Part shown: in pieces, positions 25,888-63,148 of the stretch
Position numbering within the stretch: the stretch's first letter is position 1
How the letters are laid out: each line of letters starts with the position of its first letter
NCBI RefSeq assembly: GCF_040183065.1
Contig: NC_091131.1
Coordinates: 15,951,800 to 16,015,799, forward strand
Length of the DNA: 64,000 bases
Reading direction: 5' to 3'
Origin: Periplaneta americana
Lineage: Eukaryota > Arthropoda > Insecta > Blattodea > Blattidae
Made by a program: the position numbers and the translations under genes
Notes under the pieces: model-generated
Databases searched by the model: none
What the model was told of the DNA's origin: nothing
What the model saw: only the letters and a program-made list of their open reading frames with translations

Positions 25888-26053
25888 TATGAGTCTATAT
25901 TCATCGAAAGATTCGCGTGTGGGATCATTCTGCAACATTGCCACACATGTCCATTTTCCAATATCCTTCTCTCCCACAGATTGAATGAGAATGCCACAGT
26001 CTCCCGCCAATAATCCGGTGCCGTTGTAGGAGTAATTATCCAACAAAACATTG
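25888..26053 (-). CDS. Ig-gene exon G: second half of the sixth Ig domain
   Basis: Acceptor ATATTACAG, then 166 bases in phase 2, ending CTCATA before donor GTAAGT (phase 0). It joins exon F through a serine codon (AG|C). The peptide contains YNGTGLLAGDCGILI and KDIGKWTCVAML: the D-x-G-x-W-x-C motif of Ig strand F plus the cysteine three residues before ILI that forms this family's second pair. Two N-glycosylation sites (NYS, NGT) are present. It ends after strand G (FDEYRLI). The next exon should start in phase 0 and carry a linker, membrane segment or stop; I could not identify it. Confidence 0.85.
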
Positions 26054-26841
26054 CTGTAATATGAGTAACATCATTAATTTTTCATTTCTTGACCTCAAGA
26101 AATATGAATAGTAAAATGTGCATTACTAGGCCTACTTTATAACCATCGCAGCAACGGAGTTGGAGCAGGGGCGGTTATTCAGGTGAAGTAGGTGAAGTAC
26201 TACTGTTACGAGCGCCGAGCGGTGTCTATTAGAACTTACAATACTGTAGAGGTGAAATTATTTGGGTTCCCATTCTCATACAGCACTTGGTTTCCATGGT
26301 AACGTGACGTCACGCACTAAAGAAAGATTGTATGAGTGAAGTGTGTTTCTGAGTCTTTCAGTTACGAAGAATTGTCAGACTTGTAGGTGGAGTAGGTGGA
26401 GTGACCAGTTTGCAGATCTAACGGTACTAATAATAGAGAAGGGTTGCAGCTGGTCTCCATGGCCAGGGGCTATTGTTAAAAGGCTGTGAAATTTTACAGT
26501 ATGTACTACCCAGGGCTTCTATAGCCCTGATGTACTATCTGACTCGAGAATAGTATTCTCATTCCCTGTGTCTTAGCAGCCACCCCTGCGGTAATAAATT
26601 AGCTGGCTCTATGCAATTTTACCAGCAAAGTTTAAAAGTTGTTTTCCGCGGCGTGTATTATTTCTTCTCATGAGCTCGCCAGTTTTGTTTGAGCTCTTGT
26701 ACTTGAAAGTTTAACGCGCGCGTAAATGTACAGTACACGTCATGTAGCTTAATACTGTGTACGTATATATTAACTTATTTAATGTATTTATTGATAAGTG
26801 TATATTGTGTATTAATCCTACATCTAAGTGTATATTATATG
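26054..26841. mobile_element. Intron; possible hAT-like MITE at about 26170-26590
   Basis: CAGGGGCGGTTATTCAGG at 26168 and GCAGCCACCCCTG ending at 26589 look like degenerate hAT termini, but no 8-bp duplication matches. Tandem AGTAGGTG motifs occur near both ends. The remainder shows nothing supportable. Confidence 0.35.
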
Positions 26842-27485
26842 TTTATGCTCGACCATGCCGAAATGTAGTAATTATACACCTGGTAGCAGACCTTTAATGC
26901 ATGTCATTAAAGTACATCTACTCATTAAAGGTCAGGTCTTTCAGCCAATGACGACTCAGGTTACAACTGTTCAGCCAATGACAGGTCAGCTTTCTACCGT
27001 TATAAAACCCCAAGTATCGATTATTCTCGGATATGCAATCGAAAGAGAATTAGCGAAAAGTCACGGAGGCTGGAAATCCAATACTGTCGCAGAAGGTTAT
27101 GTTCTGTTACTATAATAATTAGCGTTAATTGTAAATAATATTGAAATAAATTCAATTTGTCATCTCGTTTTTCAATGTCTAATTTAATGTCAATGTTATC
27201 TCTGTAGGTTCTTATGGCCTAGCAAGGTCAATGTGGACATCTGTTCCTCGGAAAAAATCAATACTTTCGCGTCTGCGCACATCTCACAACATACGGGACA
27301 TTGCTAAAAAATTAATAATATCAAGTTAGAAATATGGTCGAGCATAAAAAGTCGTATGAAACTCGCCTATAATGGTAATTAAGAAGCTCGTATCAAAATT
27401 ATGAAACTCGCTTGCGCTCGTTTCATAAATATCCATACTCACTTCTTAATTACCTTCATTATAGGCTCGTTGCATAATGTACTAT
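26842..27485 (+). mobile_element. Repeat family D, copy 1
   Basis: About 640 bp, also at 32952-33592 and 43826-44463. It begins TTTATGCTCGACCAT, has the inverse of that string at 27334-27348, then a fold-back tail (CTATAATGGTAATTAAGAAG and its inverse). A 95-codon frame starting MPKCSNYTPGSRPLMHVIKV is intact here but frameshifted in the other two copies. Confidence 0.85.
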
Positions 27486-28400
27486 TAATCGCTATAGTGT
27501 TATTATACAAATACAAGTACTTAGGTACCAGTACATAGAAAATGTTGATAAATTAGTGCGAAATATATATCCCGAAAATGACACGGTTTGTAATTTATTA
27601 GAAATGTCGCTTTGTAGACTTAAGTATGAGGATAAAAATATGTTTTAAATTCTTGACGACCTATAGTTCCATTTGTTCTTTGTTTTAAAAGTGCTAAGGA
27701 AATAGAGAAGTTGTATAAAATAACTTAAAAAATTCTTCCGATGAAAGAAGCATTTTTGTTTGAAAATATTGAAACTTTCACTCGGAATGATACATCACAG
27801 GAGGGACTTTCATCATTAGTCCCATAGCTTTACATAGAAATATACTGTCAACCCTTAGTTAAACTCAAATATTTTATGAATACGTCATCGACTGTTTGCT
27901 GCTTTAAAAGATAGGAGGATTGACTTGGTATGCAAGAAAATGGGTGAGTCCTGAAATAAATTAGTTTTCCTGTTTGCATGTGTTCTAGAACCATTAAAAT
28001 TGCACGTAGTTTACGAATAGTAGGCCTACTCGTTATATTGGTAAAACTGTTCATGCATTTGTTTATGTGAACAGCACTTCACCTTTTTATTGACGGCGAG
28101 CCGCTACTGAGTCGGAGTTGAAAGAACATTTCAGTAGTGGAGTCATATCCGATTTCGACCATGATAAAATCTTAAGAAAATATTACTTTAGCACTTATGC
28201 TAACATGCGAGTCTCTGGGTGATGAATAGCTCATCGTGTCACTTGCTGTGATGGCTAAACGTCGAATATTATATTTATAACTTTATATCGCAACGTTATA
28301 CCTCCTATAGACATATTATTGAGATGTTTAGATGAATCTCTGGAATTAAAATCTCCACCTATTCTTAGGTAGTTTTTAGTCGGTTATTTAACTGGATTAT
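27486..28400. other. Intron; no gene recognised
   Basis: AT-rich intronic sequence of the Ig gene with no coding signal. Confidence 0.45.
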
Positions 28401-28409
28401 TTAGCGTCG

Positions 28410-29915
28410 ATGGAAATTTTGCTGGCGAGATGTTATTTCGAGTACGTGACTCCAGATATCGATCAAATTCCAGCAGAATTAACCAGAATTAATACAAGGG
28501 GTGGAAGCGCATTATCTAGCGAAATTCATAAGCTTGTACTTGCTATTTGGGAAAAGAAAATTATAACAGAAAAATGGAAGGAGTCCATAATTGTGTCTAT
28601 CTTTAAGATGTGGGAAAATACTAACTTTAGCAACTTTCGAGGAATATCACTTTTGTTGACGTCGTACAAAATTTTGTCCAATATTCTTATGAGAAAATTA
28701 ACTCCATATGTAGATGAAATTGTTGGGGATCATCGATGTTGTTTTTGGCGTAATAGATAGATTATTGATAAGATTTTTTTGTATTCATCAGGTATTGGAA
28801 AACAAATGGAAGTATGAGGCCACAGTAAATTCAAAGATTTCAAAAAGGCATATGACTAGGTTATGAGGGAATTTATATATAATAATTTTATTGAATTTGG
28901 TATTCCCAAGAAGCTAGTTCGATTAATCAAAATGTGTCTTAGTGAAACATACAGCGGAGGTCATATAGGCCAGTTTCTGCCTGGCATTTTTCCAATTCAC
29001 TGCGGGTTAAAGCAAGGAGATGCACTATCACCTTTATTTTTTAACTTTACTCTAGAATATGCCATTAGGAAAGTCCAGGAAAAAAGAAAGGGTTTGGAAA
29101 TGAACGGGTTACATCAGTTTATTGTTTAAGCGGATGACGTCAATATGTTAGGAGAAAATCCACAAACCTATTAGGGATAGGTTTGAAAGTAAATCCCGAA
29201 AAGACAAAGTATATGATTATGTCTCGTGTCCAGTACATAGTACGAAATAAAAGTGTAAAAATTGGAAATTTATCCTTTGAAAATGTGGAAAAATTCAAAT
29301 ACCTTGGAGAACAGTAACAAATATAAATGACAGTCGAGAGGAAATTAAATGCCGAACAAATACGGGAGATGCCTGCTATTATTCGGTTGAGAAGCTTTTG
29401 TCGTCTAGTCTGCTAAAAAAACTGATAATTAGAATTGATAAAACAGTTATATTACTGGTTGTTCTGTATGGTTGTGAAACTTGGACTCTCACTTTGAGAG
29501 AGGAATAGAGGTTAAAGGTGTTTGAGAATAAGGTAGGCTACTTAGAAAAATATTTGGGGCTAAGAGGGATGAAGTTACAGGAAGTGGAGAAAGTTACACA
29601 ACACAAAACTGCACGCATTGTATTCTTCACCTGACATAATTAGGAACATTAAAACCAGACGTTTGAGATGGGCAGAGCATATAGCACGTATGATGGAATC
29701 CAGAAATGCGTATAAAGTATTAGTTCGAAGACTTGAGGGAGAAAGACCTTTGGGGAGGCCGAGACGTAGATGGGAAAATAATATTAAAATGTATGGGAGG
29801 TGGGATATGATGGTAGGGAGTGGATTAATGTTGCTCAGATAGGGACCGATGGTGGGCTTACTTGAGGACGGCATTGAACCTCCGGGTTCTCTAAAAGCCA
29901 TTTGTAAGTAGGCTA
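28410..29915 (+). pseudogene. LINE copy a (family L), RT pseudogene
   Basis: The plus strand encodes successive RT blocks: WKESIIVSIFK, FRGISLLLTSYKILSNIL, KDFKKAYD, CGLKQGDALSPLFFNF, then a stop replacing the tyrosine of YADD (*ADDVNM), NPEKTKYMIMSR, and the C-terminal RLRWAEHIARM and GRPRRRWENNIKM. The 3' end reads AAAAGCCATTTGTAAGTA. Many stops and frameshifts. It faces copy b (29998-31175) tail to tail, with about 80 bp between them. Confidence 0.88.
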
Positions 29916-29997
29916 AGTATTGGTGCGCCATTCTTAATCATTGAAAGAATGGAATTGAAATGCCAACGTACGTACTCGAATACGTGTAAGAAATGTC

Positions 29998-31175
29998 TTA
30001 CTTACTTACTGGCTTTTAAAGAACCCGGAGGTTCATTGCCGCCCTCACATAAGCCCGCTATCGGTCCCTATCCTGAGCAAGATTAAGCCAGTCTCTACCA
30101 TCACATCCCACCTCCCTCAAATCCATTTTAATATTATCTTCCCATCTACGTCTCGCCCTCCCCAAAGGTCTTTTTCTCTCCGGCCTCCCAACTGACACTC
30201 TATATGCATTTCTGGATTAGCCCATACGTGCTACATGTCCTGCCCATCTCAAACGTCTGGATTTTATGTTCCTAATTATGTCAAGTGAAGTATACAATGC
30301 GTGCAGCTCTGCGTTGTGTAACTTTCTCCATTATCCTGTAACTTCATCCCTCTTAGCCCCAAATATTTTTCTAAGAACCTTATTCTCAAACACTCTTAAT
30401 CTCTGTTCCTCTCTCAAAGTGAGAGTCCAAGTTTCACAACCATACAGTACAAACGGTAATATAACTGTTTTATAAATTCTAACTTTCAGATTTTTTGACA
30501 ACAGACTAGATGACAAAAGCTTGTCAACCTAATAATAATACGCATTTCCCATATTTATTCTGCGTTTAATTTCCTCCCGAGTGTCATTTATATTTGTTAC
30601 TGTTGCTGCAAGATATTGGAATTGTTCCACCTCTTCAAAGGATAAATCTCCAATTTTTACAGTTCCATTTCGTACAATATTCTGGTCACGAGACATAATC
30701 ATATACTTAGTCTTTTCGGGATTTACTTCCAACGCTATCGTTTTACTTCCTTCAAATAGAATTTCCGCTTTTTCCCTAAACGTTTGTGGATTTTCTCCTA
30801 ACATATTCACGTCATCCGCATAGACAAGAAGCTAATGTAACCCGTTCAATTCCAAACCCTCTGTGTTATCCTGAACTTTCCTAATGGCATATTCTAGAGC
30901 GAAGTTAAAAAGTAAAGGTGATAGTTCATCTCCCTGCTTTAGCCCGCAGTGAATTGGAAAAGCATCAGATAGAAACTGACCTATACGGACTCTGTTGTAT
31001 GTTTCACTGAGACACATTTTAATTAATCGAACTAGTTTCTCGGGAATACCAAATTCAATAAGAATATTATATAAACCTTCTCTCTTAACCGAGTCATACG
31101 CCTTTTTGAAATCTATGAATAACTGTTGTACTGTACCCTTATACTCCCATTTTTTCTCCAATATCTCTCGAATAC
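29998..31175 (-). pseudogene. LINE copy b (family L), inverted relative to copy a
   Basis: Starting at a GTAAGTAAG tail near 29998, the minus strand encodes the same protein: [29 protein letters not shown] (catalytic motif intact), NPEKTKYMIMSRDQNIV, LYGCETWTLTLREEQRLRVF and RLRWAGHVARM. At least four in-frame stops. The 5' end is truncated next to an ACT microsatellite at 31180. Confidence 0.88.
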
Positions 31176-31179
31176 AAAG

Positions 31180-31265
31180 AGCTACTATTACTAGTACTAC
31201 TACCAATGCTACTACTACTACTACTACTACTAGCACTCTACTAGTGCTACTACTGCTAGTTTACT
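31180..31265. repeat. (ACT)n-rich microsatellite
   Basis: Imperfect run of ACT/GCT triplets. It creates long valine- or threonine-rich open frames that are artefacts. Confidence 0.9.
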
Positions 31266-31305
31266 ACTGATACTACCACCATAAAATGATGATACGTGAG
31301 CTAAC

Positions 31306-31465
31306 CTGTTTTCTGGTATCAGGCTAATACCTTGGCCATCCGGCCGTACAAATCTGCAGTATTCGATCGGTTGTCCTTTAGGTACGGAGTGGCAGTTCAC
31401 AGTTGTTGTTTCTCCTACATTAACATATTGCGAGCCACTCAGGTCCTCTATCGTCATGTACGTCT
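31306..31465 (-). CDS. Ig-gene exon F: first half of the sixth Ig domain
   Basis: Acceptor TTATTGCAG, 160 bases, donor GTTAGC (a weak but acceptable GT donor). Phase 1 in, phase 2 out, fitting exon E before it and exon G after it. The peptide includes VNVGETTTVNCHSVPKG (strand B cysteine) and IEYCRFVRPDG (second-pair cysteine in strand C followed by the family's P-D-G turn). It is split from exon G inside the domain, whereas domains 1 and 3-5 are each encoded by one exon; only domain 2 is also split. Confidence 0.85.
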
Positions 31466-32052
31466 CTGCAATAAGATAACATACTTTAGAATCATGAGCA
31501 GTGGCGCAGAATCAATAAAATTATTGAGACAAATGTAACTGGGTCATTTGCAAAATTTGTATAACAAATGGACGATTGAGAACGTCAAAATTAAAGTACT
31601 ATTTAGTGCATATTCTGCATGTATTAATGTAGTGCAATGTCTCTGCCATAGTAATCAGCCACTGTACACTCACCTTGCTTTACAGCATTGTTTTGAATGA
31701 TGTAACAGACATGACGGAGTAACAGATCTGACAGGTAACATTATAGATGTTTAAATGAGACAAAAAGACAAAACAGAACAGTACCGGTATCTTTATCAAA
31801 ATGTTCTGGTTCTATTATATGATATTACCTATGGTTATATCTATAAATAGAAAGAAAACAATTCCCAAAAAAATTTACAATCTCTAATAAACATAAAATA
31901 TAACGTTAATATCTTTTTACTTGAGATTGCACACTTGATCTTATACATATGACAAGAAAATTGCTAGCCTTTTAATAAGGGCCTAGTAATTAAATAAAGA
32001 CTGGAAACGGATTATTGTCCACTGAAAGGTAGAGATGATGTTTCAAATAGGT
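31466..32052. other. Intron; no gene recognised
   Basis: No coding or RNA signal seen. Confidence 0.45.
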
Positions 32053-32925: not shown

Positions 32926-32951
32926 TGTGTATACCAACATTTATTTATTTA

Positions 32952-33592: not shown

Positions 33593-33626
<34 letters not shown>

Positions 33627-33702
33627 GTTATTAAGTTAAAGATTATCCAAACTCTAATAGCCTTGAATTATTAAACACACAAAAATGAATTTTCTTCTAT
33701 TT

Positions 33703-33770
33703 ACATTAGCTCAATTAGCTCGACTAAACCCGAAGGACGAAGATCTCTGGTTCTAATCCTCCTGAATGTC
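33703..33770 (+). pseudogene. tRNA-like sequence next to exon E donor
   Basis: A-box-like TAGCTCAATTAGCTCGAC and B-box-like GGTTCTAATCCTC at tRNA spacing. The ends ACATT and AATGT can pair as part of an acceptor stem. D and anticodon stems are poor, so it is a relic. It ends about 11 bp from the exon E splice donor. Confidence 0.45.
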
Positions 33771-33781
33771 GCTGTGCTTAC

Positions 33782-34102
33782 CTGAGATGATAACTGAGAC
33801 GCTAAGCTCATAGTCCAACTTTCCTTCCACGCCCAGCCAGCACGACATAAGGTTATCACGGTTTTCGAAGTCGACGTTGTAGATAATGAGCTTGCACGTG
33901 CCGTTCTGCAGGACTGCCGGGTCGTACACGTACTTGCTGGGCCCGTAATCCTGCTCGACAGTGCTGAAGGGGAGCATGCCGTTTGGACCGCTGAACCAGC
34001 AGTATTGAAGAAGCACGTTCATCCCGCACGTCAGCTCCACGGTGTCGCCTCTCTTCACATAGTACGGGTCCTCGCCAACCCACGACGTCATCGTGTTATA
34101 AT
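33782..34102 (-). CDS. Ig-gene exon E: fifth Ig domain
   Basis: Acceptor TTCTGTTCTTCCAG, 321 bases (107 codons), donor GTAAGC; phase 1 to phase 1. The peptide has SWVGEDPYYVKRGDTVELTC (strand B cysteine), LQYCWFSGPNGM (second-pair cysteine, strand C), LQNGTCKLIIYNVDF (second-pair partner, strand E, within an N-glycosylation site) and DNLMSCWLGVEG (strand F cysteine). All four cysteines that define the full version of this domain are present. The coding part is clearly GC-richer than the surrounding intron. A 75-codon frame inside it in another register is a shadow. Confidence 0.9.
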
Positions 34103-35640: not shown

Positions 35641-35749
35641 ACTATTCTAACCACAGTAATGCAAAAACAAGTGCTTACATAGGTATACATTAGCTGTAGC
35701 TGCTGTATCTATTTGGACCGGTCACAACTCTTAACATGAACTGCTTATA

Positions 35750-37491: not shown

Positions 37492-37740
37492 GTGATTACG
37501 TAGGGCTAGGATTTTGATAAAATTGCATCTTTTTTGTAGTAAGCCAGAAACAAAGCTGCTTTAGTATTTATATGTTATGTCAGTGATGTCAAAGAGAGCG
37601 CAAGCGTGCCTCATCGCCAGTATGCGCTGTTCAGAGCATGTACGGCACGCAGGTACAAATCACTGTTGAACTAAAGGGTTGTACATTACACATTGAGGAA
37701 GAAGTCGTTCAGTAAGTTTTAGGCTGACGGGACTCCTGAC

Positions 37741-38525
37741 GGAAAACACGGAAATTTTACTTGAAGCAAGTAAAGCGATTGGTTTGGAAGTAAATCCCGA
37801 AAAGACAAAGTATATGATTATGTCTCGTGACCAGAATATTGTACGAAATGGAAATATAAAATTTGGAGATTTATCCTTCGAAGAGGTGGAAAAATTCAAA
37901 TATCTTGGAGCAACAGCAACAAATATAAATGACACTCGGGAGGAAATTAAACACAGAATAAATATGGGAAATGCGTGTTATTATTCGGTTGAGAAGCTCT
38001 TATCATCCAGTCTGCTGTCCAAAAATCTGAAAGTTAGAATTTATAAAACAGTTATATTATCGGTTCTTCTGTATGGCTGTGAAACTTGGACTCTCACTCT
38101 GAGAGAGGAACATAGGTTAAGGGTGTTTGAGAATAAGGTGCTTAGGAAAATATTTGGGGCTAAGCGGGATGAAGTTACAGGAGAATGGAGAAAGTTACAC
38201 AACACAGAACTGTACGCATTGTATTGTTCACCTGACATAATTAGGAACATTAAATCCAGACGTTTGAGATGGGCAGGGCATGTAGCACGTATGGGCGAAT
38301 CCAGAAATGCATATGGAGTGTTAGTTGGGAGACCGGAGGGAAAAAGACCTTTAGGGAGGCCGAGACGTAGATGGGAGGATAATATTAAAATGGATTTGAG
38401 GGAGGTGGGGTATGATGATAGAGACTGGATTAATCTTGCACAGGATAGGGACCGCTGGCGGGCTTATGTGAGGGCGGAAATGAACCTTCGGGTTCCTTAA
38501 AAGCCATTTGTAAGTAAGTACGTAA
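37741..38525 (+). pseudogene. LINE copy c (family L), 5'-truncated, with intact C-terminal frame
   Basis: 238 uninterrupted codons (37784-38500): NPEKTKYMIMSRDQNIVRNG, YLGATATNINDTREEI, LLYGCETWTLTLREEHRLRV, RLRWAGHVARMGESRN, GRPRRRWEDNIKMDLREVG and a C-terminal NLRVP. The RT palm is missing. The 3' tail is GTAAGTAAGTACGTAA. GACTCCTGAC is duplicated at 37731-37740 and 38526-38535. The clean frame and duplication suggest a recent insertion. Confidence 0.9.
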
Positions 38526-39066: not shown

Positions 39067-40220
39067 AATTTGTTTCTAGAAATGTGCTGTTCCTATAATA
39101 AATACATTATTAAGTATGCAATAGTTACGTAACAATTAATTAGGTAGGCCTCATTATCTAAAACCTTTAAGATAAAAATATACTGTTTATTATGTCTTGT
39201 AGGCCTATTATTCATTTTTCCTTATGCACAATGTCCTGTAATATTTTTCACTTTTGTATTGGTAAGTTTAAAACAGGAAAACAGTGTTTTTATACTAGAT
39301 GGATTATTAGATAATTACATAAAAATTAATTATATTCTAGTTATTATCTGCAAAATATCTCAGTTAAGGAGAAGCTATGTTTATTATTTATTGTAGTCTA
39401 CTATTTTATAATTCATTGCATTTATTAGATAGGTACACTCTACAAAACATGTTCTCATTTCTTGTTGTTTTGCATGAATGTAACATGTTATCTATTATTT
39501 AAAAACAGTTTAATTCATCTCGCAATGACAGGCCAATAGAGCTCACTTTGCTCACCCCTTCTTATTCTCTGCTGCTACCTGCAGAATAGATTCATTGCAA
39601 GCAGTGAGCACTTGATCGCACGCAGTACCGTCTACGTGCTCTTGACCTTGACATCGCTGTGTTATGTGATAAACTGAGTGTTTTAAGACATACTTGTTAG
39701 GGCATTTTTTGCATTTTTGCCTGTTTCAACTCATAAGAGCATATTTTGTTTTATTCGGCCATTTTTTAGGCATTTTCATTTAATTTTGGCCATAAATCCC
39801 CATTATTAATGTAAAATAATGTTTATTTCCTTTGATATTTTCTTTACATATTTTGTCCATTAATACCCATTATTTTGTATATTATTTTAATAGTTTTCTA
39901 CACAAATATTGCCATTTTAACGTAGTACATCCCATGAAATGGATCAGTCCAACCACCCCTTCAATATAGACTCCTCTATACCTGCTAATTCCGGATAAGA
40001 GTGACCTTGTGGTAGATTACATGAAAACTAAAAGTAAAGTAAATTCATGGCGCTACAGCCCATGAAGGGCCAAGACCGACCACCTGACTGCTGACCTCAC
40101 GTCCACATGTCGAAGCAGAGGTAAACGATCATACATGGAAACTACATCACGTAAAATAATTAATTACAGTATACTACTTAGAAAAAATGATGTAAAATTA
40201 ATTTAATTACTGGTCTAAAT
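39067..40220. other. Interior of the hAT element, no gene recognised
   Basis: AT-rich, with GGCATTTTT-type motifs that recur inverted near the right end (40830-40920). Confidence 0.4.
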
Positions 40221-40755
40221 TGAGAAGCTCTTATCATCCAGTCTGCTGTCCAAAAATCTGAAAGTTAGAATTTATAAAACAGTTATATTACCGGTTCTTC
40301 TGTATGATTGTGAAACTTGGACTCTCACTCTGAGAGAGGAACATAGGTTAAGGGTGTTTGAGAATAAGGTGCTCAGGAAAATATTTGGGGCTAAGCAGGA
40401 TGAAGTTACAGGAGAATGGAGAAAGTTATACAACGCAGAACTGCACGCATTGTATTCTTCACCTGACATAATTAGGAACATTAAATCCAGACGTTTGAGA
40501 TGGGCAGGGCATGTAGCACGTATGGGCGAATCCAGAAATGCATATGGAGTGTTAGTTGGGAGACCGGAGGGAAAAAGACCTTTAGGGAGGCCGAGACGTA
40601 GGTGGAAGTATAATATTAAAATGGATTTGAGGGAGGTGGGATATGATGATAGAGACTGGATTAATCTTGCTCAGGATAGGGACCGCTGGCGGGCTTATGT
40701 GAGGGCGGCAATGAACCTTCGGGTTCCTTAAAAGCCATTTTTAAGTAAGTAAGTA
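40221..40755 (+). pseudogene. LINE copy d (family L), shortest copy with target duplication
   Basis: Encodes only the last 150 or so residues (LLSSSLLSKNLKVRIYKTVI through NLRVP), then AAAAGCCATTT and a GTAA tail. ACTGGTCTAAAT is duplicated at 40209-40220 and 40756-40767. Very similar to copy c. Confidence 0.92.
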
Positions 40756-40967: not shown

Positions 40968-40975
40968 TTATTTGT

Positions 40976-41018
<43 letters not shown>

Positions 41019-44771: not shown

Positions 44772-45056
44772 CTGTACCATTGCTCACTAGAAGGAATGTT
44801 GTGTTCCTTTCGTCGCTGCACTTCCACACGCCGAAATCACGTTGTGCGGGTTCCACTATTGTAATGGCGCACGTGTCAAGGTATGTGTACTCTTGGGTCC
44901 CCACGCCGGGCTCAACTTGCAGCTCGATGCCGTCAGGCCGTGTGAACTTGCAGTAACTGTATAAGCCGCCTTTAGTCCGTTCACAGCAGATGTCTATGCC
45001 CCTTTCAAACCTCTCGGACTGAGTCACTGATCCCACTAGTAACTGAGGCCATTCAG
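44772..45056 (-). CDS. Ig-gene exon D: fourth Ig domain
   Basis: Acceptor ATATTTGTTTAG, 285 bases (95 codons), donor GTGAGT; phase 1 to phase 1. The peptide has GIDICCERTKGG (strand B), YSYCKFTRPDGIEL (second-pair cysteine and P-D-G turn), YLDTCAITIVEPAQRD (partner cysteine) and RDFGVWKCSDE (D-x-G-x-W-x-C, strand F). Two N-glycosylation sites near the end (NTT, NGT). This is the first domain in the chain with the complete canonical Ig cysteine pair. A Harbinger-like MITE lies 60 bp upstream of the acceptor. Confidence 0.9.
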
Positions 45057-48110: not shown

Positions 48111-48115
48111 AAGGG

Positions 48116-49755: not shown

Positions 49756-50016
49756 ACGTCTCGACTACGCGGACCAGCCGAGTGGTGACTCTGGACATCA
49801 TCTCTCCCTGCACCCAATACTCGAAGGTCCAATTTCCGGCATAGGCGTCTGTGACGACATCGGCCCTGTAAGTACAACCCTGGGCAGATGTGGCGGTTCT
49901 CTTCGTAGGAGTGGTTATCTTGCAGGTTCGGATGAATTCGTTATACTCTCCAATAGAAACGTTGCTACCGCGCTCCAACACCAGCGGCTCCTCTGGTACG
50001 AAAATTTCCGTGCTAG
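49756..50016 (-). CDS. Ig-gene exon C: third Ig-like domain (reduced cysteine set)
   Basis: Acceptor TTACATTTTGCAG, 261 bases (87 codons), donor GTAAGT; phase 1 to phase 1. The peptide runs STEIFVPEEPLVLERGSNVS, then FIRTCKITTPTKRT, AQGCTYRADVV, AGNWTFEYWVQGEM and ends VTTRLVRVVET. The two cysteines align with the second-pair positions of exons D and E; the canonical strand B and strand F cysteines are absent, although G-N-W marks strand F. One N-glycosylation site precedes the first cysteine and another is NWT. Confidence 0.87.
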
Positions 50017-51098: not shown

Positions 51099-51616
<518 letters not shown>

Positions 51617-53294: not shown

Positions 53295-53326
<32 letters not shown>

Positions 53327-53904: not shown

Positions 53905-55525
53905 ATAATAATAATAATTTATTTATTTATTTTATTTATTTTATTTATTTTATTTATTTTATTTTATTTATTTATTTAATGTGCCAATTACAGTTCAGCA
54001 CAAATATAACAAAAAACATAAAACAAAAATAATTATTACACATAAATATAATTACAATTAATTACAATAATGACGATGAATGGATAACTAAGAATACTAT
54101 GAGACAATGTTAATTGAGTATAATGCCTAAAAGAATACATAAATGATAAATCGTTGCCAAGAGCAAACAAAGTCTATACATTGAAGGGATCGAATTCGCA
54201 GCTATGCATGTTGGCATTTTTAATGCATCTGGAGACTGGTGAAAGAAATTTCGAATTTCTAATATAGAAAAGTTTGTGGGCTCTCATATATTTTTTTGGA
54301 ATACGTAAGGTAATATTGTTTAAGAAAGAGTCACAGGATATATCACCTTTGAGGACTTTACAAAACAACAGATAATCTAGCTCATGGCGTCTAGCATATA
54401 GATTTTGACAATTAAAATATTCACATTTTCTCTCATAACTATACCCGGAATTAATGGGCAGAAATCTGAATGAACATAAGGATATAAATTTTCTTTGTAT
54501 ATTTTCTAATTTAGCCGAGTCCGTAGTTGTAATCGAGTTCCAAACTACAGATGCATATTCGAGTTTCGATCGCACCAATGTATAGTATAGCATTAAAAGA
54601 GAATCGGGCGTGGAAAAAGAATAAGTTATTGACCGTATTATTCCTAGCATTCTGATTGCGTGATTGTAAATGTAATCAACGTGACTATGAAAATACAATT
54701 TACTGTCAAAGAATATTCCCAAATCTTTTACGCAATCCGTTCTGTTAATTAGTACATTATTTAGATAATAATTAAATTTCAGTGAAGAAGTTTTTCTACA
54801 AAAGGTTATTACATTAGTTTTGGATACGTTAATTTTCATACCATTGTCTTCCGACCATTTAGCGACTGAATTAATGTCACATTGAAGTGATTGACAGTCA
54901 GTACTACTTTTGATTGTACGAAAAATTTTTAAATCGTCTGCAAATAATAAACAGTCAGAAGTTATTCTTTTACATATATCATCTATGAATATAATAAATA
55001 GGAGAGGTCCTAAAGTAGATCCCTGCGGGACTCCGCAATTTATATTATAAGAATAAGAGTGCATATTAAACAGTCTTACACATGGAACTCTATTACTTAA
55101 ATAATTTTCGAACCACTTTACGTAGCTTACAGAAAGGCCAATATTTCCTAACTTATGAAGAAGGATATAGTGCGGAACTACATCAAAAGCTTTGCTGAAA
55201 TCAAAATATATTGAATCAGTTTGTCCCTGCGTTTCAATTATTGGTACAATTTGATTTAGATATGTGACCAGGTTAGTGACAGTGGATTTAGTTTTAGTAA
55301 ATCCATGTTGTGAAGAATTGAGCTTGTTTTTCACATAAAACGATATATGTCTGTGAATAATGGTTTCAAAAATTTTTGAAAAGTTATTTAGGATCGAGAT
55401 AGGTCTGTAGTTTCTGACATCATTTCTTTTTCCGTTTTTAAATATAGGAATAATTGCAGCTTGTTTCCATAGTGAGGGAAATTCACCATTTTTCAAACTA
55501 ATATTAAATATGTGGGCTAAAAGAG

Positions 55526-55527
<2 letters not shown>
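53905..55527 (-). mobile_element. Jockey-like LINE with a long uninterrupted RT frame
   Basis: The minus strand is open from about 55527 to 54174 (over 440 codons) and covers most of a Jockey-type reverse transcriptase: FPSLWKQAAIIPIFKNGKR, NYRPISILNNFSKIFE, SQHGFTKTKSTVTNLV, YFDFSKAFDVVPHYILLHKL, CGVPQGSTLGPLLFIIFID, LLFADDLKIF (catalytic FADD), CVKDLGIFFDSKL and the thumb LRSKLEYASVVW-type block. Endonuclease and ORF1 are missing: the element is cut at 55527 by the tail of another LINE. The 3' UTR (53905-54173) ends in TTTAT/TTTA repeats. No stop or frameshift was noticed, so this is one of the youngest LINE copies here. Confidence 0.9.
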
Positions 55528-55570
<43 letters not shown>

Positions 55571-56385
55571 TTTATTTTAGCTGGCAGAGTTAAGGCCGTA
55601 AGGCCTTCTCTTCCACTCAACCAGCAAAAAGTGTATATACATATGCATGAACTTACAAAGAATTCAACAATTTGATTGAGAGTTACATGTATACAAGAGT
55701 TGTTTACGAATTAAACAACAAAATACTATGAACTATTAATTAGACACTGAAATAAACTGTGTAGCAGAATTAAGCTAAAATACATAGAATGTTACTATAG
55801 GTATTTCAAATAATATTAGATAATAGAAAGAGATTATTATGAGACAATTTTGAAAATACAGCAGTATCAGGATGATGTCTAAAGAATAAAGTAACAATGT
55901 AGTCAGTGATAGTTTAAATCAGTAAGATTGGAGTGAAATGCTAATAAGGTTATCTTTTAAGCTGTTCTTAAAGGTGTTTATTGTCTTGCAGCCCCTAATA
56001 CTTTGTGGCAAGGAATTCCATTGACGCGAGGTGGATACTGTAAAAGATGATTAATAACAAGATGTTCTATGAAGAGGTATACTTAGCGTGCCACAGATAA
56101 GTGATCTGGTAATTACGTCGTGGTTAGAGTATAGATAGGAGAAACGAGACGAAAGGTAATTTGGTGTTGAGGTGTGCAGAATTCGATAGAGTAAAGACAA
56201 AGAGTGTAAAGTTCTGCGTTCTTTAAGTCGGAGCCACGAAAGACTTGCGAAGGACGGTGATATGTGATAATATCGTCGGATGTTGCACACGTATCTGACG
56301 CACATATTCTGAGCTCGCTGTAACTTGACTGACAGTTCAGAACTTAGGTCACTTAACAAAACGCCACAATAATCGTACTATAGAG
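55528..56385 (-). pseudogene. LINE fragment (family with GGCC-hairpin 3' end)
   Basis: Minus-strand coding gives YDYCGVLLSDLSSELSVKLQ, MCVRYVCNIRRYYHISPSFA and LLYRILHTSTPNYLSSRFSY, then a stop and QWNSLPQSIRGCKTINTFKN. This is an RT C-terminus. The 3' end has AAGGCCTTACGGCCTT, a perfect hairpin, and a TAA tail (55528-55568). The 5' side is cut by a hAT element. Confidence 0.85.
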
Positions 56386-57376: not shown

Positions 57377-57384
57377 CTATAGAG

Positions 57385-58197
57385 TATAGCCCAACTCGTT
57401 TCGGGCGTGTAAGAAGAGATGAAACCAGGTGAAGACGAAATATTCCCTCGCACTTTGTGCAGACTTGGACTGCGCAACCAATTTTCAGGTTGATGTGGTT
57501 AAAAATTTGTCTTTCATGAGTAAAATAGTGTCCATTTTATAAAAAAAAAGCCATCAAATAATGAAATTACTTAAAAATAAATAAAAGTCCCATGCTTAAA
57601 AGTAAACAAGGTCTCATTTTAACTGCAGTTATGCGACATTATCCGTACAAATTGGAGGCGTGAGTATTACCCATTCTTATATTTGACCAGGTACTTTTAT
57701 GATAAATTCAACTTTTTGCGGTTATGAAGCAGATGTTTGAAAGAATAATTTATACTGTTACACTTATTTGTCTCCCCTAAAGCCAATAGTCTGTGCATAT
57801 TAAATTTATAATTATTTACCACGAGAATAATTTCACCCCTCTGACTCAAGATTTCACTCAGTTGCGACATTTTGTGATGATACAGGAAATACAGAAACGC
57901 GGATATCGGTGTGTATTGTGTGGTTGACGAGTAGGTAGAGATACTGTATAGGCAGAAACGTAGAACTGTCGTAACACTAACAACCACACATCAACATCTT
58001 TCGCAGGGTTGCCAATAGTCTGTGCACGAGAATTGGTTTACCACGTGAACATTTCACTTAGTCGTGTACATATGAGTAGTCGGTGAATTTGCAGACCGGG
58101 GACGAGATGCTCTTCGCCGCGCCTTTCGACTAGAAGGGAATGAGACTGTGCAAAGTGACCGCGGGGGGTAACTGATCCACTGCTAATATGAATAATT
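57385..58197. other. Intron; no gene recognised
   Basis: A partial duplication is visible: GCCAATAGTCTGTGCA at 57782 and 58011, each followed by a CCACG string. No coding exon seen. Confidence 0.45.
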
Positions 58198-58202
58198 AAT
58201 TA

Positions 58203-58430
<228 letters not shown>

Positions 58431-59140
58431 TTGAGTAATATTATACATACAGATTTTATATTATCATAATTCTCTCTAAAATCCAATGCACGGGTCTTTT
58501 GACCGTACGTGCTTTGTACCCAAAACAAGTCCTCCTTTGTAGGTCCCCCCCACCTGTGATTACATCCAACTACTCTTTAAAAGAACACACATATTAAAAT
58601 GGAAATAGCACAATAAAACACATTATATAATATATCCTAACCTAAAAGATATAAAAGTGTACAGTTGGGTGGATACTATTATCCCTCCCTCAATTCGCGT
58701 CACAAACTTCAACAGCTGAAGTTCTAATCTTTCTCGCCTTCAAGAGGAACAATCCAGTCTTTTGTTCCCATTCTCTATTCCCCATGAGGTCAAGACATGC
58801 AAACGAACTCCTATTCTGACTTAGCATCGAGGGTGGTAGATATTTTCTCCGAACATGTTCCAATTCGACACACTGTAATAAAATATGTTTATAGGAGTCA
58901 TTTTCTTTGCAAAGCGGACAAAGACGCTCCCCTTCTTCTTTGACAATTTTATTACCCTTCCATGCCCCCAATCTTAGCCACGCTAAACCTGCTCTGCTGT
59001 CTTTGTTACAAGAGTTTATGTAGTCACACCTCCCCCAGTTAAGCATGAGATCTGATTGTAAATGTAGTGAGGACTTTTCCGAACATTGGAGCTCAATCTC
59101 TTTAATTATTAGTAAAGCTTGGCTCCAATCGTCAATACTT
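58431..59140 (-). pseudogene. LINE C-terminal fragment abutting exon B2
   Basis: Minus-strand frame: FVSIDDWSQALLIIKEIELQ, RAGLAWLRLGAWKGNK, then a zinc knuckle RLCPLCKENDSYKHILLQC and a tail ending VEVCDAN. Like the LINE at 50168-50971, it is the end of an RNase H/knuckle-type LINE. Its 5' truncation point coincides, within a few bases, with the splice donor of exon B2 at 59142. Confidence 0.8.
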
Positions 59141-59142
59141 AC

Positions 59143-59253
59143 GAATGACATCTGTTTTAAACTCGGAGTAATACGTGTGGGTTTTATTGGCAGTCCACAG
59201 CATGAATGATGCTCCGAAATCATCCGGAACTGCTATATCCACACCGCATTCAC
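59143..59253 (-). CDS. Ig-gene exon B2: second half of the second Ig-like domain
   Basis: Acceptor TTTCTGATTTCAG, 111 bases (37 codons), donor GTAAGT; phase 1 to phase 1. The peptide reads GECGVDIAVPDDFGASFMLW and TANKTHTYYSEFKTDVI. The cysteine corresponds to the strand E second-pair cysteine of later domains; the strand F cysteine is replaced (SFMLW). Its length to the exon end matches that of exon A, which argues that the donor is native even though LINE sequence starts at it. Confidence 0.8.
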
Positions 59254-59409
59254 CTGAAATCAGAAATAATCACTTCCATGAAGTTAATTTTATCTTTTCT
59301 TCTCTTATTCTATTTATTTTGTGTCTTCTGTTGGCCAGTATTTTGAACGATTTTTTACAGAACAAATCTTAAGCATTTAATGAGAAAGGGGTTTAACAGA
59401 AATTATTAC

Positions 59410-59583
59410 CTGCTTTTCCCCAATAGACTAAATTGCTAGAAAAATTTCTTTCCAAGAGCGGAAATTCGATGTTGTACTGAAACAAGCTGCACTCGGTCAT
59501 GTCCACGACGTTGGTCGACAGACGCACAAACAAGTGGGAAGTGCCCACCACATAGATTGTATTGCGATGTGGAACGCCCTCAA
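59410..59583 (-). CDS. Ig-gene exon B1: first half of the second Ig-like domain
   Basis: Acceptor TTTTTGTCCACAG, 174 bases (58 codons), donor GTAATA; phase 1 to phase 1. The peptide contains VPHRNTIYVVGTSHLFVRLS, MTECSLFQYNIEFP and NFSSNLVYWGKAG. TEC aligns with the strand C second-pair cysteine; there is no strand B cysteine. One N-glycosylation site (NFS). Together with B2 it makes a 95-residue domain, the same size as the single-exon domain D. Confidence 0.82.
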
Positions 59584-59846
59584 CTGTGGACAAAAAAAAT
59601 CTTAACTCCACTAATGACAAATGTGCACTATAAATGTGAAACAGTACTCGGCGTTACAGATGACAAAATATAGTCATTCAAAAGTCACTTTAAAATTTGA
59701 GGAGTGATAAATCTTAAAAATTTTGAGGTAGAAAAGAAACTAAAATATCACTGCGTTGGGAAAACAGTGGGGTTTTGTCTTTACAAACAATTTCATCATG
59801 TCTTCAGTTCTGCTATTTAACAATAGTATATTACAATACGAGGTCG

Positions 59847-59931
59847 GGAAGTGCTTTTTACAAAATCGAGGAAAAGTTTGAAAAACGAGCAGGGCGAGTT
59901 TTTCAATTTCCGAAATTTTGTAATGCACTTC
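59847..59931. repeat. Fold-back related to family C
   Basis: Arms GAAGTGCTTTTTACAAAAT and ATTTTGTAATGCACTTC around a TCGAGGAAAAGTTTGAAAAA/GTTTTTCAATTTCCGA stem. The inner part resembles the family C hairpin (CGAGGAAAAGATTGAAAAAG) while the outer arms differ. Confidence 0.7.
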
Positions 59932-60293
59932 ACAAACGTTTATTGTACAGTATTTTTTGCACGATAGCATATTTTGACTGTGACTGATGTTTGCAGTGTG
60001 GCGAACGTACAAACTTCACCATCAACTTCAAATGTGAAGGAGTAAAAATGATTCAATTACTTGTAATATTTCGTGTTCAGTTGGAATAATTTTTATTTCT
60101 TTTTGTTAAGTGAAATTTGAATTGCTTAAATAAACTTCATTACATTTCAAATGCAGTGATTTGTTTCGTGTAACTAGCACTGTGTTCTGCATATGAATTT
60201 TACATGCGTTGTAGAATTGTAGCATATAGAAAGCAGTGGTTTTCATTACAACCCTAGACCACTTATTTGTAATATTTCAACACACTTATCTAG

Positions 60294-60780
60294 ATGAAAG
60301 AGGAGTGGAACTGAAAAAAATTCTCTCCGGCATTGGGATTTGAACCCGGGTTTTCAGCTTTACGTGCTGACGCTCTATCCACTAAGCCACACCGGATTCC
60401 CATCCCAATGCCGGATTGAACCCTCTCGGTTTAAGTTCACCTTTTGGGTTCCCTCTAGTGACCTACCCTCATGCACTGCGTCATAGATGTATGAGCAGTG
60501 GCACAATGTCCACACATGTGCAGAGGTGCACTCGTTATGAGTGACTAAGTGGCCGGGATCCGACGGAGTAAGCGCCGTCTTAAATCACTAAGTGATTATT
60601 TTTCGCATATCATATATTATTACGATGTACCGAAGTACATATGATATGTCCGTGCAGAAATTCTGCGTCATCATATGGTGAAAGAGAATTTTTCTCAGTT
60701 CCACTCCTCTTTCATCATATGATGACGCAGAATTTCTGCACAGAAATGTCATATGTACTTCGGTACATCGTAATAATATA
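60294..60780 (-). mobile_element. tRNA-headed SINE (SINE3) with large fold-back
   Basis: Read on the minus strand: a tRNA-like head (60326-60396) followed by AATTTTTTTCAGTTCCACTC. That tail recurs inverted at 60682-60714, inside the loop of a second palindrome with arms ATTACGATGTACCGAAGTAC (60620) and its inverse (60750-60775). Confidence 0.8.
60326..60396 (-). pseudogene. tRNA-like head of SINE3 (tRNA-Tyr-like, anticodon GTA)
   Basis: A 7-bp acceptor stem pairs UCCGGUG with UGCCGGA (two G-U pairs). A box TGGCTTAGTGGATAGAGC, a 4-bp anticodon stem CAGC/GCTG with loop ACGTAAA (anticodon GTA) and B box GGGTTCAAATCC are all present. The T stem is only three pairs and there is no intron as in nuclear tRNA-Tyr genes, so it is treated as a SINE head rather than a working tRNA. 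Confidence 0.65.
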
Positions 60781-60784
60781 CGTA

Positions 60785-61718
60785 CAGTAGAACCTCTATT
60801 ATCCGTGGTAATGAAGGGTGTGAGCTGAACGGTTAATCGAAAAAAATCGGATAATCCGTACCATAGAAGAATTAAGTGTTTCATAATGCAGTATCGAAAT
60901 TTTTCTCCGTGGCCATGTGTTTTAACACATTAGGTAGTGGATCAGAAGTTTTAAGTATAATAGCTCTGTTGGAAAGAGTGAGTGAAAAAAGAATAATGCT
61001 TAAACTGATCAGGAAGAGAAAAAGGAATTGGCTGGGTCACTGACTGAGAAGAAACTTCCTACTAAAGGATTTACTCGAAGGAATGGTGAACGGGAGAAGA
61101 TTTCGGGGCAGAAGAAAATATCAAATAATAGACGGCATTAAGATATATGGATATTTGCGAAGACTAAGAGGAAGGCAGAAAATAGGAAAGACTGGAGAAT
61201 GCTGGGTTTGCAGTGACAGAACACTATGAATGAATGAATGAATATCAATGACGGTTTTCTAAGGGTCAAGAAAACTTCCTATGATAGATTTCCGTGGAAA
61301 GATAGGAAAACTATAGGTCTCACGTTATAATTTATACACTTTATCCTTGTTTTTTTATTAAATACCTCACAGTTGTAACTCCAATCCCGTATTCCGATGT
61401 GAGATGAACCATAGTTCCTCTTTTCCAAAACCACTCAATTACATGCACTTATCTTCGATACTTACTTAGCACAACATATTGTATTCTTTTGGCACTTCTA
61501 GAAGACGTTTTGCAGAGAAATTAAACAGGTCACTCGAACAGTAGGTCATAATGCGTAAGGACAAAGGCTTGTATTATAATATCACTCTCTATAAAAAAAA
61601 ATACGTACTAATGTATTGTGCAATACTCAATATTTTTTCTGCAACAAAAAAGGAGAGAATGACAGACGGATAATCTAACAATCTGTTAATAGGGTGACGG
61701 ATAATTGGGGTTCTACTG
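60785..61718. mobile_element. pogo/Tigger-like MITE
   Basis: CAGTAGAACCTCTATTATCC at the left and the inverse of CAGTAGAACCCCAATTATCC at the right, TA on both sides (60783-60784, 61719-61720). These termini are characteristic of pogo/Tigger elements. A LINE fragment is nested at 60970-61245; no transposase is seen. Confidence 0.88.
60970..61245 (+). pseudogene. LINE fragment nested in the pogo-like MITE
   Basis: Encodes RIMLKLIRKRKRNWLGH, then LKDLLEGMVNGRRFRGRRKY and QIIDGIKIYG, the same family as 14725-15841. It ends in four ATGA units (61228-61243). Dead by frameshift and one stop (H*LRR). Confidence 0.82.
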
Positions 61719-62839
61719 TATCTAGGTTGGTAACTCTGAATTCAGTAAACTCAACTTTCAATCGTGGCGGCCGTTTGCTGTAATGACGGAAAGACACACT
61801 ATCGTCCAAAAACATGCTCTTGCGTTACCGTGCACTCGTTCTGTAGTGCATCTCTGCAACTCACTGCAGCAGTTCAGCCCTGCTGGTGTTACAAGTGATT
61901 GTAACCAACGAGTTAGAAAGAGAAAGATATAGAGTGGTCATTGCGCCGCCATGTTTGAAGAAAATTGAACGACCGTCCGCCATGAACTTATGCGCCCAAA
62001 ACAAAGTGGGCGTGGCATTAGAATCGTCAGCTGTCAAAATTTCGTTTGAAGCGAGGACATTTTCTTTATGTCAGGTGTAAAGATTTACTAACGTAAGTAT
62101 ATTAAGATAATATAGTAACGTGAGATGGAAAATTCGCCATTATGCATTATTTTTCCTCCTTACAAATAGTTGCTTTCTTCCTTCCCTTACAACCTCAAGA
62201 CCCTCACATGTATTCTTCACTCAATAATCTCATCACTTATCAGCTTATCAAATAAAAGTTCTAATTCGTCTAACCATTCATGGCTGTGTTAGTACAGACT
62301 CCAAAACAACATCATTGTCATGTTTGTCTTGCCGTGAGAGTACTAATTAAGAAATAAAAGCTGGTGAATATCGTATTTTGAGAACTTTACTAATCTGATT
62401 TAAATTCTCACACCACTATTAGGTCCACATGATATGATGAAAGCCTTTCATTTTAAAATAATTACTGTTGGCTGAGGAAAACATCATAACAGTTATGTTA
62501 TATGATTCGTGATTTCTCTTCTTCGTTATATCTGTGGACTCCTCACTTTATTTTTCATAACGCATTCACAATCACAGCTCAATGAGCACACCCGTACTGA
62601 TCTGTGTTACTGAAACCAAAGCTGATCTGCTACTGCAGGTAATGTACAGCCCTGTCGAGTTCCCCTCCAAGCCGATTCACTCCCTCCAGATAGGGGAATA
62701 GGAACAGCACATTGCACAGAGACAAGTGCACAATGTGCAGGGTTTTGACATGCCTGAATTATAGTATTACTCTTTGGTATTAGTGAACTCCATACGTCTA
62801 TTTCACCTGCAGTAGTCTAACAAGTAAGATTTGACTCAC
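61719..62839. other. Intron; no gene recognised
   Basis: A GC-richer patch at 61760-62050 contains a 64-codon plus-strand frame without family resemblance. No Ig exon seen. Confidence 0.4.
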
Positions 62840-63148
62840 CTTTTTCTGGCAGGTAGAAATACTCCGTGAAGCTAGCTTGGTCTCCGTATTCAGCTGTTAT
62901 GATGTACGGTTGTAAATACTTATACACGTTGGACAGGTGTATCTTGCACAAGTTTGGCTTTCCGCTGTAGGACATATCCTTACAAATGGGCGCTGTCCCC
63001 ACGGGACCTGACCCGGCCTCGAACACACATTCCTCGCCGTCTGGCATTCTCACGGTGCAGGTCACCGGGGTGTCATCGGAAATACTGAATGATGACATGT
63101 CGAAGTCATACCAGGAATAGTAGGGAATATCTACTATCTTCCCACGGG
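62840..63148 (-). CDS. Ig-gene exon A: first visible Ig-like domain
   Basis: Acceptor GATCCGAATTTTTCAG, 309 bases (103 codons), donor GTGAGT; phase 1 to phase 1. The peptide contains RGKIVDIPYYSWYDFDMSSF, DDTPVTCTVRMPDGEECVFE, GTAPICKDMSYSGK, NLCKIHLSNVYKYLQP and ITAEYGDQASFTEYFYLPEK. VTC with its P-D-G turn and NLC align with the second-pair cysteines of later domains; ECV and PIC are an extra pair unique to this domain. The canonical strand B and F cysteines are missing. Because it starts in phase 1, at least one more exon (the signal peptide) must lie beyond 64000. Confidence 0.87.

What the first reader, a model, noticed from the sequence alone, without database searches (positions are those of the whole stretch)
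25888..63148. Eight-exon gene for a six-Ig-domain protein with a four-cysteine domain signature
Eight minus-strand exons with good splice sites and perfectly joining phases were reconstructed by eye. The later domains share an unusual signature: besides the canonical Ig cysteines (strand B and strand F) there is a second pair, one in [YQ]YC-x-F before a P-[DN]-G turn and one in G-x-C-x-[IL]-x-I. I do not recognise this combination from a named insect protein. It could be a surface receptor or secreted recognition protein, possibly immune, and deserves family-level study.
Basis: partly seen in the sequence, partly recalled or inferred. Interest (0 to 1): 0.75.

Follow-up and report, generated by a model that had tools for sequence, protein, structure and literature searches.

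The report
Insect gene of Fasciclin-3-like Ig domains
This is part of an ordinary-looking insect cell-adhesion-type gene whose immunoglobulin domains resemble the first domain of the fruit-fly protein Fasciclin 3, with the twist that some of its domains seem to have dropped the usual disulfide bond and kept only an unusual second one.

Summary
Eight minus-strand exons (63148..25888) with AG/GT borders and matching phases join into one open frame of 595 residues encoding six Ig-like domains. A blind scan of both strands for long phase-1/phase-1 open exons finds four places only: exons A, C, D and E.

The signature is not new. Domain 1 of Drosophila Fasciclin 3 (sequence recalled from memory) scores 38.9 bits with a profile of window domains D, E and F+G; Fasciclin 3 domains 2 and 3 score about 0, and the best solved-structure chains 32.0 (a six-hundred-residue chain) and 22.6. 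Among 2851 window frames it picks exons E, G and F first.

Counting along the fold puts the extra cysteines at core positions 39 (strand C) and 87 (strand E). Titin I1 has a C-E bond; Cys39-Cys87 has been engineered in antibodies.

Both gene ends lie outside the window. Best reading: an adhesion/recognition protein built from tandem Fasciclin-3-type V domains. Nothing supports an immune role. Both structure models failed (mean pLDDT 40).

The parts
62840..63148 (-). Exon A: Ig-like domain 1 (102 aa), phase 1-1. Carries C-x-V-x-x-P-D-G and L-C-K-I-H-L plus a further cysteine pair; no F-strand cysteine. Assignment of its cysteines is ambiguous.
   Evidence: Splice sites and frame; blind exon scan; cysteine positions 30, 40, 55, 67. 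Profile relatedness to the other domains not significant.
59410..59583 (-). Exon B1: first half of Ig-like domain 2, phase 1-1
   Evidence: Best of 4 candidates in a targeted scan of 59253-62838 for cysteine-holding phase 1-1 exons, three of which share this donor; frame. An earlier scan for a phase-2 exit gave one candidate, not used.
59143..59253 (-). Exon B2: second half of Ig-like domain 2 (GECGVDI...), phase 1-1
   Evidence: Seen by eye in the frame listing; frame. Joined domain B: leave-one-out profile 7.6 bits, 0 of 500 shuffles; 4.3 bits, 5 of 1000 with another profile; 1.9 bits with the D, E, F+G profile
49756..50016 (-). Exon C: Ig-like domain 3, phase 1-1; only two cysteines (strand C and strand E type)
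   Evidence: 9.3 bits, 1 of 1000 shuffles against the D, E, F+G, Fas3 profile, but 78 of 500 in the window-only test and 1.9 bits
44772..45056 (-). Exon D: Ig-like domain 4, phase 1-1; canonical pair, extra pair and a fifth cysteine (CC in strand B)
   Evidence: leave-one-out 22.5 bits, 0 of 500 shuffles. Not found by single-sequence search with recalled Fas3 domain 1.
33782..34102 (-). Exon E: Ig-like domain 5, phase 1-1; four cysteines
   Evidence: best of 2851 frames for recalled Fas3 domain 1, 18.1 bits; 24.3 bits, 0 of 1000 shuffles against D, F+G, Fas3 domain 1, but only 2.7 bits, 21 of 500 in the window-only test
31306..31465 (-). Exon F: first half of Ig-like domain 6, phase 1 in, 2 out
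   Evidence: third of 2851 frames for recalled Fas3 domain 1, 10.2 bits, E 0.091
25888..26053 (-). Exon G: second half of Ig-like domain 6, phase 2 in, 0 out (GTAAGT donor). If unspliced, the frame runs four more codons (VSTI) to a stop.
   Evidence: second of 2851 frames for recalled Fas3 domain 1, 17.3 bits; joined F+G 25.8 bits, 0 of 500 shuffles; Pfam ig PF00047 on the joined 595-aa protein 24.5 bits, cutoff 21.8, over F+G
44..163 (-). Signal-peptide-like first exon (MRWLGPATIIVLVGVVLASSGEVQVTG...), exit phase 0: start of a downstream gene, or an internal alternative start of the same gene. Membership uncertain.
   Evidence: highest hydrophobic score (3.48) of the 7 ATG-plus-donor candidates that passed the scan of the whole minus strand; its exit phase equals that of exon G

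Best explanation
The region holds the middle part of an insect gene for a surface or secreted immunoglobulin-superfamily protein. Its ectodomain is a string of V-type Ig domains, at least three and probably six here, of the kind found at the N-terminus of Fasciclin 3. In these domains a second disulfide joins strand C (position 39, two before the usual tryptophan position) to strand E (position 87, seventeen before the F-strand cysteine), across the two sheets beside the canonical B-F bond. In domains B and C, and probably A, the canonical pair is gone and the C-E bond would be the one holding the sheets together. The protein most likely works as a cell adhesion or recognition molecule, as Fasciclin 3 does. 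Six of the eight exons are phase 1-1 cassettes, so whole domains could be skipped without shifting the frame. Shown: exons, frame, phases, cysteine pattern, and similarity to Fasciclin 3 domain 1 given the recalled sequence. Inferred: the disulfide pairing, location at the cell surface, adhesion function and exon skipping.
For: Exons and open frame. Window-only profile of D, E, F+G scores recalled Fas3 domain 1 at 38.9 bits (E 6.8e-9 scaled to 177,635 sequences), Fas3 D2 0.9 and D3 -1.1. Of 177,635 distinct PDB sequences the best reaches 32.0 bits as a whole chain (642-aa carcinoembryonic antigen model, no single stretch passing), the next 22.6. Other window profiles: 30.2 and 39.5 bits, 0 of 1000 shuffles, best shuffle 11.2. 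Shuffles keeping the cysteines in place reach at most 10.8. Recalled Fas3 domain 1 alone against 2851 window frames: exons E (E 3.3e-4), G (5.6e-4) and F (0.091) rank first; D2 and D3 find nothing below E 3. BLASTP of F+G with recalled Fas3: 27/77 identical, E 2e-9, best match in domain 1. Pfam gives 0 families for recalled Fas3 domain 1 alone, as for exons A, C, D, E and joined B. Spacing from the E-type to the F-strand cysteine is 17 in D, F+G and Fas3 D1, and 18 in E. APEG-1 has core residues V51 (strand C) facing C76 (strand E), with W53 and F-strand C93, i.e. W minus 2 and C minus 17; titin I1 has a disulfide between strands C and E (passages of PMC1352370). An engineered Cys39-Cys87 bond joins strands C and E in antibody V domains (passages of PMC10641266).
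Against: Replacing its cysteines by serine drops the score from 38.9 to 16.2 bits, so the cysteines carry much of the match. It depends on which domains are in the profile: in the six leave-one-out profiles recalled Fas3 domain 1 scores 44.9, 42.1, 34.0, 19.6, 19.4 and, without E, 10.5 bits. On the D, E, F+G profile A, B and C score only about 2 bits, and A is not significant in any test made. A weak PDB profile alignment puts the strand-C cysteine on the tryptophan column of PD-L1, not two before it. Both AlphaFold models have mean pLDDT about 40, so no structure supports the bond. No signal peptide upstream of exon A and no convincing transmembrane exon were found in the window.
Confidence: 0.68

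Rival explanations
1. This is the insect's Fasciclin 3 gene itself (the orthologue) with an extended ectodomain. The Fas3 D2, D3, transmembrane and cytoplasmic exons lie beyond the left edge, and the signal-peptide exon at 163..44 starts a short, fly-like isoform.
For: Fas3 domain 1 match. The signal-peptide exon is on the same strand downstream and leaves in phase 0, like exon G, so both could splice to one acceptor.
Against: Recalled Fas3 D2 and D3 find nothing below E 3 among 2851 window frames, and no convincing transmembrane exon was found. The fly isoforms are described as sharing the extracellular domains, with no long form mentioned in the passages seen. Orthology cannot be tested without insect proteomes.
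Confidence: 0.2
2. Immune recognition protein (hemolin-like or a diversified receptor): the domains bind microbes or opsonise.
For: Tandem Ig domains and cassette exons would suit it.
Against: No evidence for expression or diversity; the domains are single and very divergent (16-29% identity to F+G). No chain named hemolin is among the 60 best PDB chains shown for the profiles; that hemolin has a solved structure is recalled.
Confidence: 0.06
3. A Dscam-like arrangement in which the domain exons are alternatives rather than a chain of six domains.
For: Exons A, C, D, E are each a whole domain in phase 1-1 and so interchangeable.
Against: The domains are only 16-29% identical to F+G, more divergent than alternative-exon arrays as I recall them; two domains are split by introns, and F and G are not symmetric.
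Confidence: 0.05
4. The extra cysteines stay unpaired, or pair between domains or molecules, rather than forming a C-E bond.
For: No confident model; domain A has two more cysteines and D a fifth.
Against: A C-type and an E-type cysteine are present in 6 of 6 domains and in recalled Fas3 D1, while B and C have no other cysteines; positions 39 and 87 face each other in known structures.
Confidence: 0.12

Closest known systems
Fasciclin 3 (Fas3), Drosophila, Ig domain 1
   Same: Four cysteines at matching spacing, Y-C-x-[FI] in strand C, [YF]-x-Y before x-C-x-[ILV]-x-I in strand E, and L-G-V-E-G after the F-strand cysteine as in exon E; 27/77 identity to F+G. Fas3 recalled.
   Different: Fas3 (recalled) has one such domain followed by two ordinary Ig domains that do not match the window profiles. 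The window gene has three clear and up to six such domains in a row and shows no D2/D3-type domain.
Titin I1 Ig domain (strand C-strand E disulfide)
   Same: A cross-sheet disulfide between strands C and E (passage).
   Different: Intracellular muscle I-set domain; no family relation shown.
Antibody V domain with engineered Cys39-Cys87
   Same: Same two positions by count (passages).
   Different: Man-made; the paper says this linkage does not occur naturally in antibodies, whose normal bond is Cys23-Cys104.
V-set/I-set Ig proteins in the PDB (PD-L1, CRTAM, IgLON, JAM-A, DIP-alpha)
   Same: Weak profile similarity, for several over the whole domain, which supports an Ig V/I fold.
   Different: Scores of about 14-25 bits per chain, below recalled Fas3 domain 1 (38.9 bits).

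Membership tests
Immunoglobulin superfamily (V/I type) | Sequence match to an Ig model | tested here: met
   Joined protein hits PF00047 at 24.5 bits, cutoff 21.8, over F+G only. F+G alone 21.6 bits, just under the cutoff; E, D, C and A alone 0 families; joined B 0 families.
Immunoglobulin superfamily (V/I type) | Canonical B-F cysteine pair | tested here: inconclusive
   Present in D, E, F+G; absent in B and C; F-strand cysteine absent in A
Fasciclin 3-type V domain | Four-cysteine pattern with extra C-strand and E-strand cysteines and overall similarity to Fas3 D1 (domains D, E, F+G) | tested here: met
   38.9 bits with a window-only profile of D, E, F+G; D2 and D3 of Fas3 about 0; single-sequence search ranks E, G, F first of 2851 frames but does not list D. 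Reference sequence recalled, not fetched.
Fasciclin 3-type V domain | The same for domains A, B, C | tested here: inconclusive
   B 0 of 500 and 5 of 1000 shuffles, C 78 of 500 and 1 of 1000, A 28 of 500 and 97 of 1000; about 2 bits on the D, E, F+G profile
Fasciclin 3 (orthologue) | One D1-type domain followed by D2, D3 and a transmembrane segment | tested here: inconclusive
   Several D1-type domains in a row; no D2/D3 match and no convincing transmembrane exon in the window, but the 3' part of the gene lies outside it
Fasciclin 3 (orthologue) | Homophilic cell adhesion | not testable with these tools
   Needs cell aggregation assays
Hemolin / immune Ig protein | Sequence relation to hemolin; induction on infection | tested here: inconclusive
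   No chain named hemolin among the 60 shown of 132 or the 60 shown of 250; the rest of those lists was not shown; expression not testable
C-E disulfide (positions 39/87) | Cysteines at W minus 2 and F-Cys minus 17 | tested here: met
   E-type to F-strand spacing 17, 18, 17 in D, E, F+G, matching APEG-1 V51/C76; the strand-C placement rests on spacing and is contradicted by one weak alignment; the bond itself not shown

The most novel reading that the evidence does not exclude
This gene shows an Ig lineage that has exchanged its core disulfide: within one protein, domains D, E and F+G carry both the canonical 23-104 bond and the cross-sheet 39-87 bond, while domains B and C (and perhaps A) have lost 23-104 and fold on 39-87 alone. 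That would be a natural counterpart of an antibody bond known only from engineering.
Probability: 0.45. Interest if true: 0.6.

Novelty: new variant of a known kind. Interest (0 to 1): 0.4.

Why it matters
Fasciclin 3 is a classical insect adhesion protein whose first Ig domain gets no Pfam match (recalled sequence). This gene gives a set of divergent relatives of that domain from which a family model can be built. It also offers a natural test of whether an Ig domain can rely on a strand C-E bond instead of the canonical one, which bears on Ig stability and antibody engineering.

Tried and rejected
Rejected: 'unknown signature' (Fas3 domain 1 matches). Rejected as unsupported: an immune role. 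Left open: orthologue of Fas3; exon G as last exon (the frame would end VSTI-stop; the only poly-A-like signals in 25000-25890 are about 800 nt further, at 25089 and 25077).

Led nowhere: Pfam on single exons; PDB search with F+G alone (best E 0.014); related loci in viral contigs (13 pattern matches, none a relative) and in bacterial/archaeal genomes (65 pattern matches, none a relative); two AlphaFold jobs (mean pLDDT 40.6 and 40.2), so no fold search was made. One scan for phase-0 exons 3' of G listed 10 frames, which I judged by eye to be transposon-like, repetitive or non-coding; it asked for at least 70% pyrimidine at the acceptor, so weaker sites would be missed. No signal-peptide exon between exon A and the right edge.

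Literature, ten searches, all used: (0 papers; 1; 'fasciclin-3-like', 0; 0; 177, 12 listed, none of those with the term fasciclin III; 0; 38, 12 listed; 'fasciclin 3' with Periplaneta, 0; 40, 8 listed), 89 (2). Of five papers I saw passages only: PMC12173457, PMC12051499, PMC10641266, PMC5766482 (titin B-F-G cysteine triad, a different set of strands) and PMC1352370. The library lacks most subscription journals, so this does not show that the gene type is unpublished.


Full report
What is there. The minus strand from 63148 to 25888 carries eight exons: A 62840-63148, B1 59410-59583, B2 59143-59253, C 49756-50016, D 44772-45056, E 33782-34102, F 31306-31465, G 25888-26053. All eight have AG/GT borders; A, B1, B2, C, D and E are phase 1 in and out, F goes 1 to 2, G 2 to 0. 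Joined, they read 595 residues with no stop.

Is it chance? A blind scan of both strands asked for open intervals of at least 240 nt, phase 1 at both ends, with a [CT]AG acceptor at least 55% pyrimidine upstream and a donor matching at least 6 of 8 consensus bases. It found 0 on plus and 5 on minus: A, C, D, E and a second acceptor for A. Exons are richer in GC (0.43-0.54) than their flanks (0.28-0.40). B1 was the best of 4 candidates between A and B2 in a targeted scan, three of which share its donor. B2 was recognised by eye in a listing of frames.

The domains. Cysteine positions: D has five, E and F+G four, A four, B and C two each. The extra pair, one in strand C and one in strand E, is the only cysteine pair in all six. 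In B and C it is the only pair: no cysteine precedes the strand-C one and none follows the strand-E one. In A the assignment is ambiguous. The first of its four cysteines sits in C-x-V-x-x-P-D-G like the C-strand cysteine of the others, but the second (C-V-F) could play that part. In either reading A has no F-strand cysteine.

Relatedness among the six was tested by leaving each domain out of the profile (window sequences only): D 22.5 bits and F+G 25.8 (0 of 500 shuffles reach them), B 7.6 (0 of 500), E 2.7 (21 of 500), A 1.5 (28 of 500), C 1.3 (78 of 500). With a profile of D, E, F+G and recalled Fas3 domain 1 (the tested domain left out): F+G 44.9, E 24.3, D 20.6 (0 of 1000), C 9.3 (1 of 1000), B 4.3 (5 of 1000), A 1.1 (97 of 1000). 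With the D, E, F+G profile A, B and C score 2.3, 1.9 and 1.9 bits. So D, E and F+G form a group (E mainly through Fas3 domain 1), B and C are likely members on mixed evidence, and A rests on its exon form and motif alone.

What family? Pfam finds only a weak 'ig' match (F+G 21.6 bits, cutoff 21.8; joined protein 24.5 bits). I recalled the first Ig domain of Drosophila Fasciclin 3 as having the same four cysteines and tested it. The window-only profile of D, E and F+G (A6) gives it 38.9 bits, against 0.9 and -1.1 for Fas3 domains 2 and 3. The same profile against 177,635 distinct PDB sequences gives at best 32.0 bits, as a whole-chain score of the multi-domain carcinoembryonic antigen model, then 22.6. 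Two other window profiles gave 30.2 and 39.5 bits with 0 of 1000 shuffles reaching them. The score depends on the members: over the six leave-one-out profiles it ranges from 44.9 bits (without A) to 10.5 (without E). Shuffles with cysteines held in place reach 10.8; changing the cysteines to serine leaves 16.2 bits, so the cysteines carry much but not all of the match. Searched alone against 2851 window frames of at least 15 residues, recalled Fas3 domain 1 ranks exons E (18.1 bits, E 3.3e-4), G (17.3, 5.6e-4) and F (10.2, 0.091) first; D is not listed; Fas3 D2 and D3 find nothing below E 3. BLASTP of F+G against the recalled ectodomain finds domain 1 with 27/77 identities. Exon E also shares L-G-V-E-G after the F-strand cysteine. 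Pfam gives no family for domain 1 of the recalled Fas3, although it gives Ig families for the rest of the ectodomain.

The second disulfide. From the E-type to the F-strand cysteine the step is 17 residues in D and F+G, 17 in recalled Fas3 domain 1 and 18 in E. Counting back from position 104 in antibody (IMGT) numbering, whose conserved positions I recalled, this gives position 87. The step from the B-strand cysteine to the C-type one is 9 in E and in Fas3 domain 1, 12 in F+G, and 11 or 12 in D, which fits position 39, two before the conserved tryptophan position (here F or I), better than position 41 itself. In the APEG-1 crystal structure V51 of strand C faces C76 of strand E, with W53 and F-strand C93 (passages of PMC1352370): the same W minus 2 and C minus 17. 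The same paper reports a disulfide joining strands C and E in titin I1. In antibody V domains a Cys39-Cys87 bond between strands C and E was engineered, and the authors state that it does not occur naturally (passages of PMC10641266). A weak profile alignment with PD-L1 put the cysteine on the tryptophan column instead; I give the spacing more weight because that alignment needs an eight-residue insertion a few residues before. My own structure models failed (mean pLDDT 40.6 and 40.2), so the bond is inferred, not shown.

Function. [quoted passage not shown] By relation, adhesion or recognition at the cell surface is the most likely role. Nine N-glycosylation motifs in the 595 residues suit an extracellular protein. 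Nothing found bears on immunity.

Limits of the gene. No first exon was found between A and the right edge, and no convincing exon between G and the left edge except a signal-peptide-like first exon at 163..44. That exon leaves in phase 0, as G does. It may start a tandem neighbour, or be an internal start of the same gene giving a short isoform; the window cannot decide. Close relatives would be in insect proteomes; by their descriptions none of the sequence collections here holds insect genomes, and the search of the window's own genome did not complete. That the source is a cockroach-like insect is only my recollection of similar transposon remnants and was not tested.

Verdict. A real gene of a known kind, with an unusual variation: a string of Fasciclin-3-type V domains in which the second bond looks more constant than the canonical one.

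Noticed in passing
window 44-163, minus strand: Signal-peptide-like first exon with exit phase 0, same strand as and downstream of the gene; possible tandem neighbour or alternative start.
   Followed up: partly
window 313-1784: Tandem repeat of 184 bp, 8.0 copies, 96% matches, just 5' of that first exon on the minus strand.
   Followed up: no
window 18022-18787: Tandem repeat reported with periods 100, 254 and 354 bp, AT-rich.
   Followed up: no
window 21414-22511, minus strand: Open frames that look like a Tc1/mariner-type transposase (recognised by eye).
   Followed up: no
window 37697-38500 plus, 40219-40731 plus, 30529-31260 minus, 54174-55571 minus: Reverse-transcriptase-like LINE fragments between the exons (recognised by eye), which fits a large, repeat-rich genome.
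   Followed up: no
window 62840-63148, exon A: Two further cysteines besides the extra pair, possibly a third kind of bond; unexplained.
   Followed up: no
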